DNA of 31,821 nucleotides from Hymenochaete sp. R1 (Eukaryota; Basidiomycota; Agaricomycetes; Hymenochaetales; Hymenochaetaceae): positions 1-31,821 of the forward strand of contig JAFREE010000218.1 of NCBI GenBank assembly GCA_019400425.1, read 5' to 3'. Of the stretch, positions 1-31,821 are shown in pieces. How positions within the stretch are numbered: position 1 is the stretch's first letter; each line of letters begins with the position of its first letter. The notes beneath the pieces were generated by a model. That model was not told where the DNA came from and did not search any database. It saw only the letters and a program-made list of their open reading frames with translations. The translations under genes were made by a program, and so were the position numbers.

Positions 1-790
1 AAATCCGACATGGAATGGGTTCTTGAGACAGACGATGTTAATGTCAAGACAGCCATGTGCGTTGACGGTGTCGATTGAAGAGGACGTACTCCAATAGCTG
101 TGTGGAGTTCTTCAACGTCCTTGGTATCGAGGCTGCTTGAGCAGCATTCATGAGGGAATTGCGCAACGTCAACGAGTTCGATGGTACGTATGTCAACTAT
201 CGACATTTGGCTCTTCTTTGCGATCCGATGACTCGTCGCGGGTCGTTGATGGCCATCACTCGTCGCGGTATTACTCGTGCGGATACCGGAGCTCTCATGA
301 AATGTTCGTTCGAAGAGACTGTCGAGATTTTTATGGAGGCTGCTGCTGTGGGAGAAAAGGATGATTGTCATGGTGTTGCAGAGAACGTCATGCTTGGACA
401 AATGACGCCTATGAGCACGGAGGCTTTCGAAGTTGCGCTCGATATGAATACGCCGAGGGATGTCATCGTCGACCGTCGCCTGCCAGAGCGGAACAGGCTC
501 GCTGCTCAGGAGGATGGCGGTACGACACCAGGTCAGGCTGCTATGACGCCTTACGACAGTAACTCTCCGTCATGGTCGAGCGATATGGCTTTCGAAGGAG
601 AGCAAGCAGCATTCTCTCCACTCGCTGGTAATGGGGGCGATGACCCGTCATCGTTCTTCTTCCCCGGCTTTGGACAAAGTCCTATGGGAGCCGGAGCGAT
701 GTCCCCAGGCCCAGGCTACACCCCGAGCTCGCCGAATGCGTACTCACCGACGTCTCCTTACGTGCCACAGTCACCGTGTGCAAGGCTACC
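1..790 (+). pseudogene. RPB1: Broken 3' part of RNA polymerase II largest subunit gene
   Basis: The translation matches the C-terminal part of RPB1, the catalytic subunit of RNA polymerase II: EWVLETD, then [59 protein letters not shown] and a CTD start with heptads [20 protein letters not shown]. Three lesions are visible. One base is missing near 76-77 (a GAT-TTG-AAG type junction reads gattgaag), so the frame changes. The codon at 138-140 is TGA where RPB1 has Arg (CGA), a CpG transition. After YVPQSP (about 777) similarity stops and the frame runs into unrelated AT-rich DNA, so the repeated CTD heptads are gone. Several normally conserved residues are also changed. It is a dead partial copy, not the working gene. 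The left end is cut by the window, so its upstream extent is unknown. Confidence 0.9.
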
Positions 791-1262
791 CCCGCTTAGT
801 TTAGACAATGTAATTGTTCTATCTTGTGAATTAATATATATTTATATATAATATTGGTACTTTGGTCCAAATTCAGCAGGCTGCGTTTGTCGTCAGAACA
901 CTCGTTCTTTGAGTTCGGTTTGGCTTCAACTTTGGTTTTCCTGCTTGTTGTATGCTTCCGAGTTAAAAAAAAACCTTCTACCAATAAATGCACCATTGGT
1001 CAATAAATTTATATAAGTAAATACTTTAAAATTGCAAGTCTTCGAATCTTAATTCTTTAAATGCTTTAATTTAGAAACTTAAAACCTTTGGACCTTCTCG
1101 CTAAAAGGCTTGGACCTTCAAAATCTCGCTAAACGGCTTGGACCTTCGGCTAGGTCTTGGACCTAATAAACCCCCTCGGTGACCACCATACATACGCATT
1201 CATCAGGATCGTAAACTCGATGCATTCTCAAAGAAGCAAGTTCCGCAAGACAAGGAAAAAAT
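791..1262. other. AT-rich gene-free stretch after the RPB1 fragment
   Basis: No coding frame can be supported here. The sequence is AT-rich from about 830 to 1080 and contains the short degenerate repeats listed separately. The RPB1 similarity ends just before it, so the left side is probably a duplication or insertion breakpoint. Confidence 0.6.
1088..1162. repeat. Short degenerate direct repeats (GGCTTGGACCTTC type)
   Basis: The unit ctcgctaaa(a/c)ggcttggaccttc occurs twice in a row (about 1098-1147), with related partial copies on both sides (ttggaccttc and ggtcttggacct). They lie beside the RPB1 pseudogene break. Function is unknown; they could be the remains of a mobile element end. Confidence 0.6.
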
Positions 1263-7306: not shown

Positions 7307-8494
7307 ATGGAGGCTGTCATATAATCGTTTCTGTGCGAGGCTTTACGCCCAGTTGGGTCTGCATCTTGGAAGAGGATGACGACGAGCCCCGTCGCGCGGG
7401 GTTGAATTTGAAGGGGTTGAGCTATGTTTATGATTTCGGGTTATTAGATCGGTTAGAGTGAAGAAAGGTTGAAAATTGAACTCGTAAATTTGAATGTGTA
7501 TGCAATCTGATCGTACCAGTACTGGTTCAAATTATTTGAGCAAAGAAAGAAACTGCATGTCCGTGTTCAGAGATCGACAGTGTTCCTTAGAGGATGCGTG
7601 CATGCTTTTAGACGGTGGTGCTACCTCGCTTTCTTACACCATTATGTCCTTCATGACTTTTCCCTCTTCATCTTTATCGACGATGATAATGGCAATGGCA
7701 ACGGTGACGACGAAGACGGTGGTGATGAAGATGACGGAGACTTGACACAGACTGTAACAGCAGGCGCTCAAAAAAAGACCATCGTGACCAAAGAAGGGCT
7801 CGAGAGACTCGGGTGTCTCCCGCACGCACCGTCGCCAATCGACGCTCACCTTATCTTCAATGCTTTGCAGGCCTCATGGACTTTCAAACACGCTAACTTC
7901 ATTATTAGAGGCTTGAAAGTTCATTTCGAGTCCGGTGCGACGGAATGCCGAAAATCACTCAATCAGCAGCGCAGTCCGCCTCGGAGTTTCAATTCCTCGC
8001 TAAGAGCTATCCTCATCTGGTATTGTCAGAAGAGATATGGATGATAAGGTGAGGCTCTCTTTCTAACTTTCATTTATGCGACAAGAGAGTTTTGCTAATA
8101 GAATTTCTAACTATGACCGATAAACCGGGAATGCAGCGTTCGATAATAATACGCTTCGTGTTCTCTTCGACCGGAACCGTCCACACCAAGGCTACGGACT
8201 GACTCACAACAAGCAAGGCCCTGTTTACCTAAATCACGAGTGGGAAGTGATCCCACTTCACCTCGGACTGTGAGTCATTCCGCGCAATGTGTTATTATTT
8301 CCAAACAAAATGACTGTCTTTCTCGTGAGACCACAGCCATGTACACGTTTCCTTCTGGGCCACATGTGCTACGGACGATTATGAATGCCGTTGAATAGTT
8401 TCGCCTGCCGTGGATGGCATTCTTTAGCGATAGCTTCGGACGGTATTTAACTCCGTACTTAAGGATCGAAGCGATTAGTCCAACCCCCGTCGGC
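7307..8494 (+). other. Spacer with exon-like fragments between methyltransferase and acyltransferase
   Basis: An Asp/Gly-coding stretch from GAC/GAT repeats lies at about 7678-7745. Several pieces look like exons. One frame from ATG 7945 (MPKITQSAAQ...) runs to a GTGAGG donor at 8049. A second exon-like piece, 8137-8269 (RVLFDRNRPHQGYGLTHN), is followed by donor GTGAGT. A third, 8337-8394 (HVHVSFWATCATDDYECR), ends in TGA. Pieces 2 and 3 join in phase. Piece 1 joins only if a weak GTCAGA donor at about 8026 is used in the longer frame that starts near 7580; from ATG 7945 the join hits a stop. It could be a small real gene or a decayed one. I do not recognise the product. Confidence 0.3.
8442..8448 (+). 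promoter_or_regulatory. TATA-like element before the acyltransferase
   Basis: TATTTAA, about 47 nt before the ATG at 8495. The position suits a short-leader fungal promoter, but the match is weak. Confidence 0.25.
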
Positions 8495-10320
8495 ATGGCG
8501 GATTTCGTCTTCTCTGAGACATCAAAGAGTGTCTTCACGCGTAAATGCCAAGGAGGAGAAGCCTATGTGTGCAATGCTTCGTGAGTCTCTGAATCCTTTG
8601 TGCTGTATTTTTCCCCATCGTCTTATTTCCTTCGTCCATAGAAACGGTGAAGAAGGTGCGGTACACACGAATATATCGGCAGCTGTGACCTTCGGATCCC
8701 CCTATAATAAGGTCGCTTTAGAACCCAAGCTTGAGGCTGCTCTACTTCGGCTTCGTTACTGTGTACCGTTGATTGCGTGCACCATCTCTCGACCTGACAT
8801 CGAGTTTCAGTACAACTATATTGTTCCTGACTCGCTCGAAGCCGCATCCAAATGGGCAAGGAGCACACTCTTTATATCAGAAGAGGCCAGAGGATTTGAG
8901 GAGCGGCACAAGCAGATGCATGAAGACCATTGGTGGCGGACACTGAGTGGACAGTATCCCCTGGAGTTTCATGTCTGCACCGACTTGCTAAACAACGATG
9001 GGAAGCACTGGTTGTTCCTGTGAGTGATTGTCCGCTCGTGCTTCTCATTCGCCAGCTCACGCGTCTGTTTGAGGATGAGTGCTCATCATTGTGTCCTTGA
9101 CGGTCGAAGTGCCTTCATGATTTACAATCGCTTTTTTGAACTGCTCAGTGGCGAGATGACGAACCCCCTTCCCCTATCTGATTTGGTTTGGGGTGAGGAG
9201 GTTTGTCGATTGCCGCCTGCTGGTTCCATAGTCTGGGATCTGCACGATGGCAAGAGACCAACATTGCCTTCTCTTGAATCGTGCATCCCTCCGCCACCTG
9301 CAGAGAATCAGGTAAATAAAATTTGAAAACATCGTTCACCTTGACATTCAATCAAACGCCCCTCTTAGATTCCCATGAAGTATTCCTTCATAGAGAATAG
9401 CGCAAATCCCTCCAAGGATAATCTTCTCCGCCTCAAGCTTTCAAAAGATGATACCTCACGTTTACATGCTGCATCAAAAACGCGAGGGTTCACGGTGACG
9501 CAAGTGCTCACAGCGATGCTGAACCTGGCAAATATCGAAACGGCACTCCGTGTTGCAGGCAATATCGGACAAGAATATTATGAAGAAGTTTCGACATCTT
9601 TCCTAAAGAGTACACATTTCCCATCCTCTGGCACGATCAATAAAGTGAATTTCTCAAAGTTATGCACTGAAGAGCTGCGTATTGAGTGAATTGATGCACA
9701 GCGCGACTCGTATCCTCCAGAATATCGCCAACTGGAAGGTACACCGATGGTCGCGTTCGATTCCGCATCTATCTCAGTGCCTATGGAGCCAGTCCGAAAA
9801 ATACTCAAGCTAGACGAGTTGAATCTGTCCGTGACAAGGAACATGAATAGCGCCGTATTCTGGGAAGAGATGGTCAGCGATGTCAAAAAAGCTTGGGCTT
9901 CAGTCGACGTGCGTATTCATATTTAAACTTTCAGTCTAAAACCACTCTTACATTTCTGTGCAGAAAAGTAACAGTACGCACAAGGCGATTTCCGTCTTTT
10001 TGAGTATGCTTGGCAACGCACCCTCCCCCGATGCCGCTTTCGCCATAGCGCGAACTACCGCACCTACGTACGGCTCTTTCGGTGAGATGTCGCGACTTGG
10101 CCTCCTTGACGCTTTTCGCCCTGGAACAGGCGGTGATGTGCTCGCAGTGAATGACCTTTATTTCTCTGTGAAGTCTCGCCTACCCTTATACTCGAATTTC
10201 CTGTACGAGTATGATGGTCAGCTTCAGATAGTATTGCTCGTTGGAGGGAAGTTCTCGTTGCCAAAGGATTTAGAAACATATTTTGAGATTTTCAATGAAC
10301 TCTTTCAATCCTTGATTTGA
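8495..10320 (+). CDS. HHxxxDG acyltransferase (condensation/AATase-like), 513 aa
   Basis: Six exons: 8495-8580, 8642-9019, 9074-9311, 9369-9644, 9702-9908 and 9964-10320. Introns are 54-61 nt and all phases agree, giving 513 aa from MADFVFSE. The active-site motif HHCVLDG lies at residues 159-165. This is the HHxxxDG signature of the CoA-dependent acyltransferase superfamily (alcohol acetyltransferases, BAHD enzymes, NRPS condensation domains), in which the second His deprotonates the acceptor. There is no carrier protein or adenylation domain next to it, so a stand-alone enzyme that acylates a small alcohol or amine is likely. The start at 8495 was chosen because its exon joins exon 2 at a GTGAGT donor in phase; a later ATG at 8529 is in another frame. 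The TGA at 9687-9689 falls inside intron 4 (donor GTGAAT, acceptor CACAG), so the gene appears intact. The plant DFGWG motif is not seen. It probably works beside the methyltransferase. Confidence 0.82.
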
Positions 10321-18922: not shown

Positions 18923-19835
18923 GGTCGCCTGTGTCTAATCTTACTTTGAATATGCAAAGCCTGGTTACCTAAGTTGAATTGCTCCGTCGTTTGCAGGGGC
19001 TTCCATACACTGGACTAGGCAGATTGAACAAAATGACCAGTATAATTCACCGGTATATTTCACCATTAAGGTTTAGATGGAATGAGGTAAGTACAAAGTA
19101 CATTTGGTATGATGCGTGTGCCCATATTTAATTGTAAAAGCACTCACCAAATAAGTACGTCGTTGCCACGTAGCTAGCTTTTATCAGCCTTCAAACTTGT
19201 ACGTTCCTTATTCCAATATTCCACGGATCCTGAGCTAAAAATGCTACATGTTTAGATATATATTATCTCTTAAACGTTAGAATTCTTTAACAGAATACAT
19301 GGTCATGATACTGGCTCGAAGTAGACACGCCTGCTTTTCAGCAATACCCTGGCCCCCACGACATATTGAACCATATGAAGAGTCACAAGAACGAGTTTTC
19401 CGCGTCTTTCGAATACTGGCTTGTTTCCCAATGCCTCGCTGCAGTACTGGCCGAAATTGAAGATTTAGATCGCTCACCGGAGGCACAATTTGGCTGCATG
19501 CCTCGCGCTCTTCCTTTAAATACTGGCATTGTGAAACTACTATTCTCTTGCCAAGGATCGCAGCTGCTTTGTTTGCGTCTTCTCGCGGTTGTGAATCGGA
19601 AGGTACATTTGGAGCGATTGTACTTGCACTTATACATGACAAATAATTAGCTTTCCTGCCTTGTCGAATATACACATTTCCCCTTCCCCGTGACAGAGCC
19701 AAAAAAAATTACGACGAATAAAACAACGCAGAGAACACTCTGAAGGCGCACAATCCGTTCCGCAAAATCACATTTCACCAAATCGTTCATAGAATTCGAT
19801 AAGCTATATCAAAGCATTCCGTTATGCACTAAACA
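18923..19835. other. Spacer upstream of gene B
   Basis: AT-rich to about 19270. A minus-strand frame at 19277-19702 is open for 141 codons, without a known domain or clear start. It could hold more 3' exons of gene C if the KH-like tail continues (a CTTCAG acceptor lies near 19740), but I could not join it in phase. Confidence 0.35.
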
Positions 19836-20154
19836 TTAGAGACAACGATCGAAGAGACGAACCTTTTCCACCTCAGCTTTAGCACCGATGACGGCTTCTT
19901 TTGGCCCACACAGTCTGACACAGGGTATATCATATAGGATTGAAACACCATGCCCTTGTTCAAGTCGCTCTCGCAGATTCTGCGAGGATTCGAAAAGTTT
20001 CTCGTGCAAAGCATGAGGGACGACCTGAAGGAAAAAAAATATTTGATAGTAGATCAATATGTAATCGTGTTATTCAGGATAGTGAACGAACCATCATTTC
20101 GGTGAAAGTAGAGTCATCTAGATCTAGGAGAAGAGGTAACGGAGAGCTGGACGC
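19836..20154 (-). other. KH-like exons at the 3' end of gene C
   Basis: Exon 20092-20154 (LDLDDSTFTEMM) and exon 19836-20024 (VVPHALHEKLFESSQ, LRERLEQGHGVSILYDIP, VRLCGPKEAVIGAKAEVEKV) read like a KH-type RNA-binding repeat. The classic GxxG loop is not obvious. They join in phase to each other (donor GTTCGT, acceptor CTTCAG) and to the zinc-finger exon before them. The 181-nt intron before 20154 has no AG until its acceptor, which supports that site. The second exon may end at a TAA or at another GTTCGT donor after VEKV. It may be the tail of gene C or the remains of a separate KH gene. Confidence 0.4.
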
Positions 20155-23100
20155 CTGCGGTAGAACACGTCAATGATGCGTTGAAGCCGACGGGTGAGAG
20201 GGCGTGAATTAGACGCGACAGAGGGGAGGGAAGGTGGAGAATGCGTCAGAAGATTGATTATCCAAGTCGAAACGTGGTTCAATCCAGGGTACATTAGTGC
20301 GCAGTTAGCCGGCCACGAAATGATAAACAACGTACATCGAGATTGTCAAGCCTGCCAAATGTTTCATCACAAGCATGAGAAATGTTTGTAGTTGGTTCCG
20401 TTAGGTGAAGGACTTCAGGTTGGTGCTGCCTGGAAACAGAATGTGAACTAAGACGCAAATTCGCTCTGTTAGTTCATTAAGGTGGAACACTCCACACGCA
20501 TAAGACTCACTCCCGGTCGTGCTCGCGAACGAAACCCTCGTTGGAGACTGACCATTCACAAACGTAAGAACTTTCCTCCGTGTGAGATCGTAAGTGAACT
20601 AAAGGGTGATGATACGAAATGTGTGAGCATGGATCGGCGATGATGGGGAAAAAATAAGGCCCGAGTAAACGGACTTCTTAGATCGGAGCGGTGTATGAAT
20701 GTAATCTTGCAATCGGGGAAGGGACAGATTAGACAATCCACATAGGGCCGCCTGTTCGCGCTGGCGGGTTGTGTAGCATTCGTGGTGACCTGTTGCTTTT
20801 CGACTTGAAGACTTAGAGGTAAAAGAGGGGGTATCGAGCCACCATTTAACTTGGTGGTCTGTAGCTGGGCAGCATCAGCATTCGCAGGACTGTAGAGAGC
20901 GGCCGCATTAGGCACATATAAAGCATCCAAATGCTCGCCGAGAGACGAAAAAGGGGCAGAAGTCGAACTTGTAGGGCTCGACCTGATCAACGCCGTCGGA
21001 GAGGGCAAACTTGGTCCAGCCTGAAAAAGCGTAGAATGTTGAAGTTGTTGCTGTTGAATAAGAGATAGGTGCTCTTGCTGCTGTTGTACCTGCACACGCT
21101 GATGATCTTGACTATGAAGCAGAACATCTGACCGGGGGAACCCTGCCTGATGGTAGCGGCGACTGATGGGTATTCCGGGGGAGAGTAAATTAGAGCTATT
21201 TGGAGGTGGAGGGACAAACGCGCTGGCTGCTGCGTAAGAATGGCGCTGCTTATGAATATAAGGATGGCTCGAGGGCCTAGAAAAAAGACCCAAGTTGCGG
21301 TTTTGATGTTGTGCCTGCTGCTGCTGGCTAGAGGAAGAACAAAAAGCAGGGGATGATGATGATAATGCTTGTGGCATGACAGTTGGTTGCTGCGCTTGTG
21401 AGCGAGGATACTGGAACTGCTGTTGCTGGATGAGACGCAGTTGCGCTTGCCGGTGATGGTCCCGTCCGTTTTTCGTCCACGACTGCTGCATTGAGTTTCG
21501 TGAGACAAAAGGCGACATCTTGAAAGTCGTCTGACTCGGATCCATTCCCGTAGACGGAGAAAAGAACGATAATTTTCGACTTGAGGCTGCAGTAGATGGG
21601 AATGGCTCTACAAACGGCCTAAGGCATTGCTCATAAGCATTCTTGAGCTTCTGCGTAAGTAGCTCGGATGCTTCAAAGATGCTATTACAAAAGCCTAATC
21701 GACATGCGATCAAGTCCCAGTGATTGCATTCGTTGACCTGTAATCAATATCAGCTTCCCGTACGAAGGACTTAAATACTGCTTTAAGACGCCTCACACGT
21801 TCAACGCCACCTAAACCTCTAACTTCCACGTAAAGATCATACAGATCAACGGACTTATTCTCGAGATCAATCGATTCTGTTGGATCAAGACGTCCATTCT
21901 CTGCCCCAAAGTCGAGGAATTTCTGCTTGAGTTGCATCCGGGACATCAATGGCGGAACACTCATCGCCCCTTTCGGAGTGTGATCCTGCTGATAGATTGT
22001 GGTCTGTGGTGGGCCTTGCCGCGATTGGAATTGTCCTGGACTCTTGGAACGCCAGGATGTAGTTGTCATCCTTGACTCACTGATTGGGCTGTATGTTGGA
22101 GGCATTGAATAGTCATATGGTGTTGAACTTATGCGCTCTCTTTTTGCACGGGCCTGCGAAGCGCGTTGACCCAACGAACCAATATCGACCATCGTATCCA
22201 CGTCATGCATTTGAAGAGACCTTCTACGTTTTTGTTCAATATGACCAGGGGCGATCGGATTGACGCCTGAATCATCCGCGCGTTTCATGAAAGACATAGG
22301 TGCAGATGCAAGCGTGCCTCCAAAGAGATGTGAAGGCTCCCTAAGCATCCCATCAATGATATCTCGGGCTCGTGGTCTTTCCATTCTATTCTTCGCCCAA
22401 CACCTCTGCATAATCTCCCACAATCCATTCTCAATACCCTCCGCCTTTATGTGATCCTTGCCCGGCTTTTCAGGGCACCGACCATGGTACAGTTCAATCA
22501 CCACCACAGGGTCCAGAACCGTGTTTAGGAACGGCGGACGCTCCGTGAAGAGCTCGAGTGCCAGCATGCCAAAAGACCAAATGTCGGAAGCTGGCGTGGG
22601 GTTTGGGAGGCCTGCATTTCGGTCGTCGTTGGTGGAATTGGAAGTTGAAGAGGATGACAGAGCGGAAGGTGTAGGGAGAGAGTTTGGGGGAAAGAGGAGC
22701 TCAGGCGCTTGCCAGCGGAGGCAACCGTGATCGAGCGATGAGTTGAATGAATTGAAGAAGCTGACGTCGAGACGAGAGAGACCAAAGTCGGCGAGGAGCG
22801 CATGGTGAGCGTCATCGATGAGAACATTTGCCTTAAAATTGGGATGAATTAGTTTAAAGATTGAAAATAGATGACGATCCGTCCGAACGCACACATCGTA
22901 TGTCCTGATGAACGATAGGAGGGTCATGGCTGTGGAGGTAATCAACGGCTTTCGCGATCTCCACCAGCTGAAACAAAAGCATATCAGAAAAGTAAAATTA
23001 AGAGCTCTTCTGTATACGCACTAAACGCTTTCGCCCCGTCTGAGGGAAGGATTTTACAAACTGAAGCGCAGTGCCATTCTTCATCCACGGTGACGCAATC

Positions 23101-24110
23101 GCAGGAGACGAAAACAAAGAAGTACAGAGCCCAAGGAAGGCCAGGATATGTGGATGTCGAAGCTGTCTCCAAAGAAGAGCCTCTCTACATAGATTCTATC
23201 GCAAGCACCATCAATCACCGTTGCAGACGCGAAGAAGCGAAGCGTGAATGACTCACCCGATGGAGTTTATGTTGCTTGTCTAGAGGCAAACGCGGGAGTT
23301 TCAACGCAATTAGCTCCGACACAGTTTGCATCCCTTCCCCCATTAATTTGGAGCACCTCGACGCCATATACACGTCACCGAAACCTCCACTATTCCTTGC
23401 ACGCTCGTCGCATAATTTCAGACCATCCAGCACCATGAATTTTGGGATTGACTGGAACTTGATTGCCAAATGAAACAAGACGTCTAAAAGACACGATCGT
23501 CGCCTGTCGCGATAAAAAAGGGAGTCCACGCACTGGAAACAACATACATTAGATACGGAGAAAATCAAAAGTTAGGTCTGTACACACATTTTGAATACTC
23601 TTGGTGAACTCTTCAATTGTTTCCATATCGTCGTAATTAGCGCTCTGGTCCTCGCCAGTCGATGCTCGAGGTTGCGTTAGTAGCCATACGTCCATCATGC
23701 ATTCCAATCCGCTAGGCGCTCTTCCATCCCCGACATGCATACGTTCCACAGCCCAAGCTCGGAAGAGAAACTGCGTGCTCTCAGCCTAGAGGAAAAGCTA
23801 TCCTTTAACAGACGCGTAAGTCAAGTCTCAAGAAAAGGGCACGCACCACGTTTTCCGGAGGGGAGTTCTCATCCTTGAGGGCCTTCAGTAGCACGTTATC
23901 CGTTCCTATACCCAGTCCCGGCAGGTCGACATTAGTACCTAAAGCGACCCCATGTTGCTCGACTGTTTGTGGCAAAGCACCGTAGAGCGCTCGGTCGTCA
24001 TACACAGCCTGAGTTTCCAGCGGCACTTCGAATCCCGAACCTACCTGGAAAGCTTCAGCGGCAGACACGAATGGCGAGAGGTTTGCAACCAAGACGTTTC
24101 TCCGAGGCAT
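19836..24110 (-). CDS. Gene C: protein kinase-ARID-C2H2 zinc finger fusion, over 1,080 aa
   Basis: Start MPRRNVLVANL at 24110. Exons: 23847-24110, 23588-23785, 23257-23532, 23022-23180, 22893-22967, 21797-22831, 20675-21737, 20511-20598, 20336-20429, then less surely 20092-20154 and 19836-20024. Phases agree throughout. The kinase domain (about 190-430) has glycine loop GGFGDVY (203-209), Lys232 in IALKL, HQD at 319-321, Asn326, DFG 339-341, APE 366-368 and SDIWSFG, so it looks active. RQLRHPHILAFLG is typical of mushroom tyrosine-kinase-like kinases. ARID lies at about 624-713 (VDLYDLYVEVRGLGG, then HWDLIACRLGF and YEQCLRPFVE). A Q/S/P-rich linker follows. The C2H2 finger is C1007, C1012, H1025, H1029, with degenerate fingers after it. 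One 1035-nt exon holds both the kinase C-lobe and the ARID start. ARID plus C2H2 recalls SWI/SNF-type subunits. The 23180 acceptor is ambiguous. A separate ARID gene starting at Met614 is the main alternative. Confidence 0.8.
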
Positions 24111-25948
24111 CGCGACTTGACGTTAATAGCGGGGAGCGTCTGGATGCTAGAAAGCCTTGGTTTGCGTCGTACAAGGCAGAGGTGACACAGAACTCCTAAC
24201 ACAGCAGTACTGCACGCATCAATCATCATTCATTGTTGGCGTCGTCAACTCTGAGTCCATCTTCGCACGAATCGCGATCGAATTGACGGAACCTCGTCGG
24301 GCGCCTCCAGAGTCGTTAACGCATGACGCCCTATCCATCCTACGTCGAGGAAGAAAGAAAAGAAAAAGTGAGTGACAAGATGGGCGGTCCGAGTCTTCGT
24401 CTGTTTGTGTCTCCGTCCGCGTGCCTGAGAAGGCGCGTCAACAGGTACAAATAAGAAGTCGCCTCATTGATCTTGAATCGTCTTGTAATTATAAAAAAAA
24501 ACTTCGCAAGAAATCGTATTCACTGCACTTGCATGACACATGATGCATGATACTCACTCCAGCAAATTCTTGCAAGCGTTTTGCTCTCGTTAAGGAGAAG
24601 TAGATAAGACGTAAAGTCCAAATAATGGCGGCTTACTCGCAGTCGGAGGTACATTCCCGACTGTATCTATCTATCTTTACTTCCAACCTCTAGTCTCCAA
24701 CCTCCAACTAGCACTCACATACAATTGCGATAATGTACAACATAACATTAACAAGATACGACTCTGAGCGGGAACACTGAGCTTACCGCGCGTCAGAAGC
24801 TCAGTAATTTGTGACACACGATGAACAAAAAAAAGCACCTCGTACATGTACAGAAAAAGTGGTTAATTCACGCCTTCGAGTCTCATATGAGACTTTGCCT
24901 TTGTCCCGTGGGCTGTGGGTAACGAGAGAGAGACGATAAGAAGAGAGAGGGGGGACGGTAGCAGGAGATTGATACCTATAGCTTATACAGTGTGTTATAA
25001 AGAAAAGGAGAAGAAACAGATCTAGAAGCAGAAGCAGAAACGAGAGGTTGCGGTTCGCAAATTCCGAGTCGATCCAAGTGTCGGTGGTGTCGTTGGTATC
25101 AGCAGTAGTGTTTTCTGTCCAGCGCCGAGTCGTGTTATACTCCCTCCCTCCCCCAAACAACACACCCAACAAAAACAAGCACTTTCCCTTCCACGCATGC
25201 TCTGCAAGAAGAATGAACCCGGCCTAGCTAAAGGAAAAAGAACGAAGCAAAGAGACGAGGCGAGACGAAAGGCCAAAAAAACAAGTCTCCAAGTCTTTAG
25301 TCTTCACTTTACTCACGTACCCAAGAACGAAGAGACGAGTTGGGATGGGTGTGGTGTAGGTGTGGGCGGTTGAAGAGAGGGGGGGGGAAGGAAGGAGTCG
25401 CTCGAATGCGTACGAGAACCAAGCGATGACGATGATGACGACGATGAGAGTAGAGAGTAAACCCGAAAAAAAAGGAGATCATAAGGAACGATAAATTAGA
25501 AGAAAGGGAAACGGAAAGAAAGACAGAAAATAAAAATTGATATTTCAGATAGGCCATAACCCCAACCTCGCCCCCTCACCCCCAGGGCATATCGATATTG
25601 TTACAAAATTCACGATTCGTTATTCAGCAATTCGACACACGAGAAAGAAGAAAGACAAAGACAAAGGGGAGAAAAAACGACAAAAGGCCCCAGGGAAAGG
25701 AAAGATGGATGACATAACATACGTATACGAAGCGATACGAAGATGGACGAGAAGAAGGAAAGGGGAAGGTGGACGAAAAGGCGATGTACACGAAAACAAA
25801 GTAAACAAGCGTAAGCGCAGCGGGAGACTGGATACCGCACAATGAACGGGGACGGGCGTCAAAAGAGAAGAAAAGAAAGAAAAAGAAAGAGAGAAAAAAT
25901 GGTACACGTATATGTAGTATATGTATAGGAGCGATTTAGTCTGATTCG

Positions 25949-29158: not shown

Positions 29159-29332
29159 CAGTCGTCTCGATTAGGAAATATTTCACAATGTTAACGTCGA
29201 TCACTGTAATATCACGTAATCACAGTCTTCCCGCGATGGGTTGAATGTTTCAACTTCAACTCGTCCACAATGCAGCATTATGTAATATTGCAGCCTGAGC
29301 TAGTACTATAGTACTGGTAGATTGAAAATTGA

Positions 29333-29523
29333 GGCTCTGTTCGGTAGCGTTGCTAACAGGTTGCTTGCTAGTGCTATCTCCGCTTAACACACATAGGTTC
29401 CCACGCTTAGTGCTGAACTTGCTTTCCGCGTGTTCAATCGTTCCACAAAGCGTGGGAACGGATTTATGTTAAGCGTAGCTAGCACTGGCAAGCAACCTGT
29501 TAGCAACGCTACCGAACAGAGCC
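29333..29523. mobile_element. 191-bp MITE with long terminal inverted repeats
   Basis: The left end GGCTCTGTTCGGTAGCGTTG is repeated in inverted form at the right end. The first 36 bases match perfectly and the arms stay similar for about 75 bases (29333-29407 against 29449-29523), so the element can fold into a long hairpin. TGA flanks it on both sides (29330-29332 and 29524-29526), a 3-bp target duplication. It has no coding capacity. Terminal bases and 3-bp duplication recall PIF/Harbinger (Tourist-like) elements, though those usually target TWA; hAT-type origin is less likely because no 8-bp duplication is seen. Confidence 0.8.
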
Positions 29524-29526
29524 TGA

Positions 29527-31082: not shown

Positions 31083-31772
31083 CTATCCCGAGCCCCCGTA
31101 CATGTACATCACATCGCCTCCATGCCGTCTCCTATCGAACCCTTTCGGGTTCGGCGTCCTCACCCCAGACTTATCCAACTCCTCCAACATCTCAGAACAC
31201 TCCTTCCAAACCCTATACGCCTCCTGGCGGTACCGCTCCGACGAGACGACAGCGTACAACTCCGCGTCGTCGAAGATCGCGGCTTTCCAAGGCGTGCTTG
31301 TGCTGGAACCTTCGACTGAGAACTGGGGCGTCTCTGAGTCGAAGAGCAGCGCTGCGTCCTTCAGTTGGTCCTCGCGGAATGCTTCCACACGTTCTTCTTC
31401 CTCGTCCAACGCGAGCGTCGTCAGCCCGTCTACCCATTTCTTGATCACACCCGCCTCCGCCTCCGTCCCCGCCTCCGTCCCGAATGACTCGGATGCCCAT
31501 GTACTCTTCATCCACCTCTCCAGCGTACCGTGCACATCACACGGAGCCGTCCTGATTTCATTATGCACCTCGTTATGAGACGCACGATAGCTCCGGAGCG
31601 TCGAGCGATCATCCTTGTCACACGCGTACCGCAGTTTCCGACGAAGAGACCTAAGCCTCCCCAATGACTTCATCATCTTCACGCGAGCCAGGCGGGCGTC
31701 CATGATTCGCTTTTGGTGCTCGTACAACCCCCTCGCGTCGCTACTTGTGTTAGGCTTGAGTGTTGATCTCAA
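31083..31772 (-). CDS. Charged helical protein, 5' end unresolved
   Basis: A minus-strand frame of about 229 codons ends at TAA/TAG-type stop 31083-31085 after GGDVMYMYGGSG. Arg/Lys-rich helices lie at the start (LARVKMMKSLGRLRSLRRKL), then acidic ones (LALDEEEERVEAFREDQL), then YRVWKECSEMLEELDKSG. The frame has no ATG at its open start (the first candidate codon is TTG) and an in-frame TGA lies about 24 nt upstream. Either the gene begins at the internal Met near 31702 or an upstream exon lies beyond the right edge. No domain is recognised. Its style resembles genes A and B, but I see no convincing alignment. Confidence 0.5.
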   Translation of the reverse strand: MRSTLKPNTSSDARGLYEHQKRIMDARLARVKMMKSLGRLRSLRRKLRYACDKDDRSTLRSYRASHNEVHNEIRTAPCDVHGTLERWMKSTWASESFGTEAGTEAEAGVIKKWVDGLTTLALDEEEERVEAFREDQLKDAALLFDSETPQFSVEGSSTSTPWKAAIFDDAELYAVVSSERYRQEAYRVWKECSEMLEELDKSGVRTPNPKGFDRRRHGGDVMYMYGGSG

Positions 31773-31821
31773 GCCGGAGGTTGGTTTGCTTCGTCACGCA
31801 GTATGAATCTGAACGGGTGTT

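What the first reader, a model, noticed from the sequence alone, without database searches (positions are those of the whole stretch)
20336..24110. Protein kinase fused to an ARID and C2H2 zinc-finger protein
Kinase motifs (GGFGDVY, IALKL, HQDIRCAN, DFG, APE) and an ARID domain sit in one spliced frame. A single 1035-nt exon (21797-22831) runs without interruption from the kinase catalytic loop to the middle of the ARID, so the join does not depend on a guessed intron. A C2H2 finger with perfect C-x4-C-x12-H-x3-H spacing follows after a Q-rich linker. ARID plus C2H2 is the layout of chromatin-remodelling subunits; I know of no such protein with its own kinase domain. It would tie phosphorylation directly to an AT-rich DNA-binding or chromatin protein.
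Basis: partly seen in the sequence, partly recalled or inferred. Interest (0 to 1): 0.88.

Follow-up and report, generated by a model that had tools for sequence, protein, structure and literature searches.

The report
Chimeric kinase gene with DNA-binding domain
A mushroom-type fungus has one long gene whose predicted protein joins a kinase to an ARID DNA-binding domain and to a piece copied from a separate zinc-finger gene, which looks like a new gene put together from parts of older ones.

Summary
The join is real in the DNA. A splice model gives kinase (Pfam 102 bits), ARID (47 bits) and one C2H2 finger in one frame, and the 1035-nt exon 22831-21797 carries kinase and half the ARID uninterrupted. 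The Q-rich/C2H2 part (21326-20131) is a truncated duplicate, introns included, of a separate intact three-finger transcription-factor gene on contig C304 of the same genome. The copy lacks the last exon, and two of three fingers lost a cysteine. So the ARID-C2H2 block sits between kinase and tail, and the intron after the finger is a hybrid of two genes. The model has 11 exons, 1154 aa. Its frame stayed open longer than simulated drift predicts, while the fingers decayed or were remodelled (29 window-only against 0 C304-only changes). It is not an Rsc9/ARID2-type subunit. No RNA evidence; no kinase-ARID relative was found, in searches of limited reach.

The parts
23847..24110 (-). Exon 1 (Met1; aa 1-88), start of the predicted chimeric gene
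   Evidence: ATG with an in-frame stop upstream; best-scoring frame
23588..23785 (-). Exon 2 (aa 89-154)
   Evidence: GT-AG intron of 61 nt before it; its end ...SIQN| shares the intron position with C202
23257..23532 (-). Exon 3, kinase N-lobe: GGFGDVY, IALKL
   Evidence: Pfam kinase match from aa 202; homologous to a C202 exon
23022..23195 (-). Exon 4, kinase (CREALLWRQL...)
22893..22967 (-). Exon 5, catalytic loop HQDIRC
21797..22831 (-). Exon 6, 1035 nt: kinase C-lobe (DFG, APE), linker, first half of ARID
   Evidence: single open exon; Pfam kinase to aa 488, ARID from aa 636
21738..21796 (-). Intron inside the ARID, 59 nt, position shared with the two other ARID genes found in the genome
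20675..21737 (-). Exon 7: second half of ARID, Q-rich stretch, first part of finger 1
   Evidence: ARID to aa 716; no stop
20131..21326 (-). Truncated duplicate of the C304 three-finger transcription-factor gene, introns included; the match ends inside that gene's last intron
   Evidence: 74% DNA identity over 963 bp of C304; extension to 21326 at 64%
20511..20598 (-). Exon 8: end of finger 1 (H-x3-H), degenerate finger 2 (second Cys lost)
20336..20429 (-). Exon 9: degenerate, incomplete finger 3 (first Cys lost; its last part lies in an exon that the copy lacks)
20025..20335 (-). Hybrid intron, 311 nt: first 205 nt match the C304 gene's last intron, the rest with the acceptor belongs to the kinase gene's tail side
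19863..20024 (-). Exon 10: tail homologous to the C-terminal tail of the C202 kinase paralogue
   Evidence: alignment score 83 against a maximum of 39 in 500 shuffles
19768..19803 (-). Exon 11: LIEFYERFGEM and stop TGA; same intron position as C202

Best explanation
This is a lineage-specific chimeric gene of an Agaricomycete. The host gene is a TK/TKL-type kinase with a short conserved tail, as in its C202 paralogue. A SWI1-like ARID now follows the kinase in the same exon. Behind it lies a DNA-level copy of the middle of a C2H2 transcription-factor gene, which ends inside that gene's last intron. The broken intron's donor now faces the acceptor of the kinase gene's tail exon in matching phase, so the frame runs on to the old stop region. 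Shown: homologies, breakpoints, open frame, conserved catalytic residues. Inferred: one transcript, one protein of about 1154 aa. Most likely action (inferred, untested): the ARID brings an active kinase to chromatin, where it phosphorylates nuclear or chromatin proteins; the Q-rich part serves as a flexible or activating segment; the single complete finger adds little DNA binding.
For: One open frame through 11 exons with a single stop. Kinase, ARID and C2H2 by Pfam. DNA copy of C304 with introns. Tail homology and shared intron with C202. No ARID in the whole C202 contig, about 19.5 kb of C304 and 9.9 kb of C289: best E 1.1; in leave-one-out controls the same kind of profile found the first half of each left-out ARID at E 0.0002-0.002, but the second halves only at E about 2 or not at all. 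ARID closest to the genome's SWI1-like ARID on C106 (shuffle z 17.4, against 12.7 for C157), with ARID1A/SMARCF1 best in the PDB. Catalytic residues kept. Kinase against C202: nonsynonymous difference 0.254, synonymous 0.787, saturated. Copied part open where simulated drift gives P 0.015 to 0.0017 for 0.10-0.20 substitutions per site.
Against: No RNA. Exons of the copied part are no better conserved than its introns (416/553 = 75% against 278/359 = 77%), and in the DNA alignment its exon gaps are not all multiples of three, though the net frame is kept. For the core alone the drift test is weaker (P of no stop 0.25, 0.09, 0.045, 0.019 for 40, 75, 100, 150 substitutions in 561 bases), and P is 0.077 at 0.06 per site for the longer part. 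Fingers 2 and 3 are broken, and all 29 changes that can be assigned lie on the window branch, as in a decaying copy. The tail ends earlier than that of C202. The ARID has no traceable DNA source and could be older than assumed. A donor-like GTGAGT lies in the linker (aa 580), so alternative splicing is possible.
Confidence: 0.62

Rival explanations
1. Decaying composite: the transcription-factor fragment landed in a kinase or kinase-ARID gene and the product is now drifting; only the kinase domain matters and the rest is a passive read-through tail.
For: Exon and intron identity to C304 are alike; two of three fingers lost ligands and all 29 assigned changes are on the window branch; last source exon missing.
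Against: The copied part stayed open where simulated drift predicts about 4-7 stops at 0.10-0.20 substitutions per site; dN/dS of its core against C304 is 0.31, bootstrap 0.19-0.46, which includes the constrained C304 branch; usable splice sites remain throughout.
Confidence: 0.22
2. Two overlapping transcription units: the kinase is one mRNA and an ARID (or Q-rich/C2H2) protein starts from an internal promoter and Met (for example Met619 of the model).
For: In-frame Met codons lie before the ARID (among them Met584, 619, 625 and 628); the C304 source gene starts with its own Met.
Against: No stop separates kinase from ARID or ARID from C2H2, so kinase translation must run through unless spliced; of six candidate introns of 45-90 nt inside exon 6 none has the branch-point pattern tested.
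Confidence: 0.12
3. The kinase-ARID join is old and shared by relatives; only the C2H2 part is new, and the relatives were missed. (This concerns the age of the ARID join and overlaps with the best explanation.)
For: The ARID shows no listed DNA-level match elsewhere in the genome and keeps the common ARID intron, so it is not a young copy. could only return proteins of about 190-600 aa, so a long kinase-ARID relative could not appear there; need shared 5-residue words; no fungal genome collection could be scanned.
Against: No ARID found in the C202 paralogue; 0 of the 22 kinase relatives show an ARID (one hit at E 0.30); none of 716 candidates for residues 490-735 scored E 10 or better.
Confidence: 0.33
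4. Assembly artefact joining unrelated loci.
For: The window is a whole 31,821-base contig with repeated sequence at both ends.
Against: The copied part is about 25% diverged from its source, so it is no mis-joined copy of C304; the frame is kept across it, and the kinase tail lies on its far side.
Confidence: 0.03

Closest known systems
C202 kinase gene of the same genome
   Same: Kinase 45-73% identical by matched stretch, same introns where compared, same C-terminal tail
   Different: A different middle part; no ARID found and no C2H2 copy between kinase and tail
C304 C2H2 transcription factor of the same genome (paralogue on C315)
   Same: Source of the Q-rich/C2H2 part, 74% DNA identity including introns
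   Different: Separate intact gene with three fingers and a last exon that the window copy lacks; no kinase or ARID found beside it
SMARCF subunits: Swi1/ARID1, Rsc9/ARID2
   Same: ARID of SWI1/ARID1 type; the ARID2 type also has a C2H2 finger (passages of PMC9170682)
   Different: Has a kinase, no RFX domain, and a finger of different origin; the ARM fold could not be judged by Pfam
Agaricomycete TK/TKL-like kinases, including FslK (PMC3937382; sections 5 and 7 and passages seen)
   Same: TK/TKL-like catalytic domain; HQDxRCAN as in Schizopora relatives
   Different: PMC3937382 reports extra domains in only 16 of 241 FslK members; the word ARID does not occur in its main text (its Table S3 not seen)

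Membership tests
Eukaryotic protein kinase (TK/TKL type) | Gly loop, VAIK-type Lys, alpha-C Glu, HxD, Asn, DFG, APE | tested here: met
   Alignment with C202, P0002 and P0004; Pfam
FslK kinases (PMC3937382) | Pro at the fourth position of the GxR motif; clade in a kinase tree | tested here: inconclusive
   The window has HGRC at the place aligned with GERL of EGFR; no tree was built
ARID domain family | PF01388 above its curated cut-off | tested here: met
   47.1 bits against 24.1; shared intron
SWI/SNF SMARCF1 (Swi1/ARID1) | ARID with an ARM fold | tested here: inconclusive
   No ARM or BAF250_C match in the 1154-aa model, but Pfam finds none in four exon frames of the SWI1-like C106 gene either, so the test lacks power
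SWI/SNF SMARCF2 (Rsc9/ARID2) | RFX domain and C-terminal C2H2 of its own beside the ARID | tested here: not met
   No RFX match, while the RFX profile finds a gene on C289 at 82.9 bits; the C2H2 derives from another gene
Three-finger C2H2 transcription factor (C304 type) | Three complete CCHH fingers | tested here: not met
   One complete finger; fingers 2 and 3 each lack a Cys, and the last exon is absent
KH-domain protein (tail) | KH_1 above its cut-off or a confident KH fold | tested here: not met
   C202 tail 15.6 bits against 21.5, window tail piece no match; two-sequence model mean pLDDT 59; no KH chain among 15 PDB matches up to E 10

The most novel reading that the evidence does not exclude
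A working kinase that acquired chromatin targeting by gene assembly: a SWI1-like ARID and a captured transcription-factor segment were built into a TK/TKL-type kinase gene, one junction being rescued by a hybrid intron, and the captured zinc fingers were then remodelled faster than the introns beside them, giving the fungus a DNA-tethered kinase of a kind not described before.
Probability: 0.3. Interest if true: 0.78.

Novelty: new variant of a known kind. Interest (0 to 1): 0.52.

Why it matters
If the protein is made, it would put a kinase catalytic domain on the same chain as an AT-rich DNA-binding domain, a combination that I recall from no described protein. The locus also shows steps of new-gene assembly: the source gene of one part, a paralogue without the insert and the breakpoints are all in one genome, and the 3' junction is a hybrid intron. 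That makes exon capture by breakage inside an intron directly testable in a fungus.

Tried and rejected
Rejected: C2H2 as the native Rsc9/ARID2 finger (C304 copy; the only RFX hit of the genome, on C289, showed no ARID in 9.9 kb). Rejected: a KH domain at the end, my own first reading from the sequence. Rejected: an intron donor at 21778 inside the ARID, which I weighed while reading; the donor at 21796 restores the ARID consensus. Rejected: chance open frames. Not settled: how the copy moved; I made no systematic search for transposon ends at the breakpoints, though repeats lie nearby. Led nowhere: protein search for residues 530-1089 (7983 candidates scored, none at E 0.001) and 490-735 (716 candidates, none at E 10); Rfam and tRNA scans of the window (0 matches each); paper searches for a kinase-ARID protein.

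Full report
What was checked. The window is the whole of contig C133 (31,821 bases) of an unnamed 27.8-Mb genome in 336 contigs. The finding lies on the minus strand.

Pfam finds PK_Tyr_Ser-Thr (102.4 bits), ARID (47.1 bits, aa 636-716) and zf-C2H2 (21.2 bits in the whole protein, under the cut-off of 25.2; 25.6 for the end alone). The two long open stretches (436 and 395 codons) exceed the longest in 300 order-1 simulations (307). With a codon table from 31 long open frames of other loci of this genome, the model frame is the best of six in 10 of 13 segments, the linker and both ARID halves included; exons 4 and 5 have an antisense frame that scores higher and exon 8 another sense frame that is slightly higher (two rows there were cut one base out of phase, and I read their second column). 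The ARID intron sits at the same codon boundary in the C106 and C157 ARID genes.

The C2H2 part is a copy of another gene. Window 20131-21092 matches C304 at 74% over 963 bp; a looser alignment carries this to 21326 at 64%, about 22 codons inside the C304 gene. The C304 gene is an intact three-finger transcription factor (zf-C2H2, three stretches, 52.5 bits). The introns were copied too: 67/76, 52/80 and, for the part present, 161/202 identical. The match stops inside the last C304 intron, so the last exon, with the end of finger 3, is missing. In the window finger 1 is complete, finger 2 has lost its second Cys and finger 3 its first. With the C315 paralogue as outgroup, of 83 compared positions 29 are unchanged, 29 changed on the window branch only, 0 on the C304 branch only, and 25 are other patterns, C315-only changes among them (alignment laid by eye).

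Exons 20024-19863 and 19803-19768 encode a tail homologous to the tail of the C202 kinase paralogue (local score 83; maximum of 500 shuffles 39), with the same intron position. The C304-derived donor at 20335 and the tail acceptor at 20025 are in matching phase, and the 11 exons give 3465 nt, 1154 aa and one stop. The first 205 nt of this 311-nt intron match the C304 gene; the rest does not. C202 has kinase, a different middle part and the tail. A profile of the three ARIDs gave nothing better than E 1.1 in the whole C202 contig, about 19.5 kb around the C304 gene and 9.9 kb of C289. As a control, with each ARID left out in turn its first half was still found at E 0.0002-0.002, the second halves only at E about 2 or not at all. 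A genome search with the C202 middle and tail part returned C202 itself and one weak place on C75 (E 0.11); it did not return the window tail, which was found by direct alignment only.

The ARID is of SWI1/ARID1 type: shuffle z 17.4 with C106 against 12.7 with C157, and ARID1A/SMARCF1 is the best PDB match, E 6e-6. No DNA-level match to it was listed in the genome, so its own origin and age are open.

Is it functional? For: the catalytic kinase residues are kept; the kinase differs from C202 at 0.254 of nonsynonymous sites while synonymous sites are saturated at 0.787; the copied part has no stop where simulated drift gives P(open) 0.015 to 0.0017 for 0.10 to 0.20 substitutions per site on the window branch. 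Against: that P is 0.077 at 0.06 per site, and for the core alone 0.25 to 0.019 over 40 to 150 substitutions; exons of the copied part are no better kept than introns (416/553 against 278/359) and not every exon gap is a multiple of three, although the frame is kept overall. dN/dS of its core is 0.31 (bootstrap 0.19-0.46), but this mixes both branches. The finger changes exceed what the introns would give: 29 of 58 assignable positions changed, which under drift needs about 0.35 substitutions per site, against 23% intron difference. This fits relaxed or remodelling evolution of the fingers, and I do not choose between the two.

Relatives. None of the 22 kinase relatives showed an ARID (one hit, P0007, at E 0.30), but that search could only return proteins of 0.55 to 1.75 times the 345-aa query, so a long kinase-ARID protein could not appear. 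Searches with the long protein for the ARID region found nothing (7983 candidates at E 0.001; 716 candidates at E 10), but they need shared 5-residue words, and no fungal genome collection could be scanned. Papers: PMC2838846 (passages only) does not contain the word ARID in its main text; PMC3937382 (sections 5 and 7 and passages) says that 16 of 241 FslK kinases have extra domains, its Table S3 not seen; PMC9170682 (passages) describes SMARCF architecture; [quoted passage not shown] Five paper searches aimed at a kinase-ARID protein returned 135, 4, 2, 2 and 101 papers, of which I saw 15, 4, 2, 2 and 10 as titles and abstract beginnings; none named one.

Verdict. The reading as a chromatin-remodelling subunit with a kinase does not: the finger is a truncated copy of another gene, the RFX domain of the Rsc9/ARID2 type is absent, and the whole lies between the kinase and its tail. 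Whether an ARM fold is present could not be judged, because Pfam finds none in the SWI1-like C106 gene either. The best account is a young chimeric gene. That the ARID tethers the kinase to chromatin is inferred and untested.

Noticed in passing
window 1-1191: Fragment ending in [18 protein letters not shown] repeats, read by me as the 3' end of an RNA polymerase II largest-subunit gene; 97% identical to the end of contig C56 and 92% (first 781 bases) to C300.
   Followed up: partly
window 24453-24642: Degenerate short repeat with listed copies on C148, C305, C113 and C166 (72-76%); the C148 copy has inverted ends, so it looks like a MITE, about 340 bases upstream of the gene start.
   Followed up: partly
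window 29332-29524: Palindromic element: matches on both strands, about a dozen listed places elsewhere in the genome, some partial, up to 97%.
   Followed up: no
window 31745-31821: End of the contig is a 77-base repeat, 97-100% identical in eight listed places.
   Followed up: no
window 8484-9862: 72% match to C262 and, inside it, about 257 bases at 93% to C139: another duplicated piece.
   Followed up: no
window 20674-20599 and 20335-20131, against L024: Introns 1 and 3 of the copied part are 88% and 80% identical to C304, higher than exon 9 (64%); unusual for introns.
   Followed up: partly
P0012 (Fomitiporia mediterranea): Kinase-like protein with a C-terminal C-x4-C-x12-H stretch (YKCKWLHCSKSF...) read by eye: a possible independent kinase plus C2H2 join; its precomputed Pfam list names only kinase families.
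   Followed up: no
window about 22080 (aa 580): A donor-like GTGAGT lies inside exon 6 in the linker; its candidate introns of 45 or 77 nt lack the tested branch-point pattern.
   Followed up: partly
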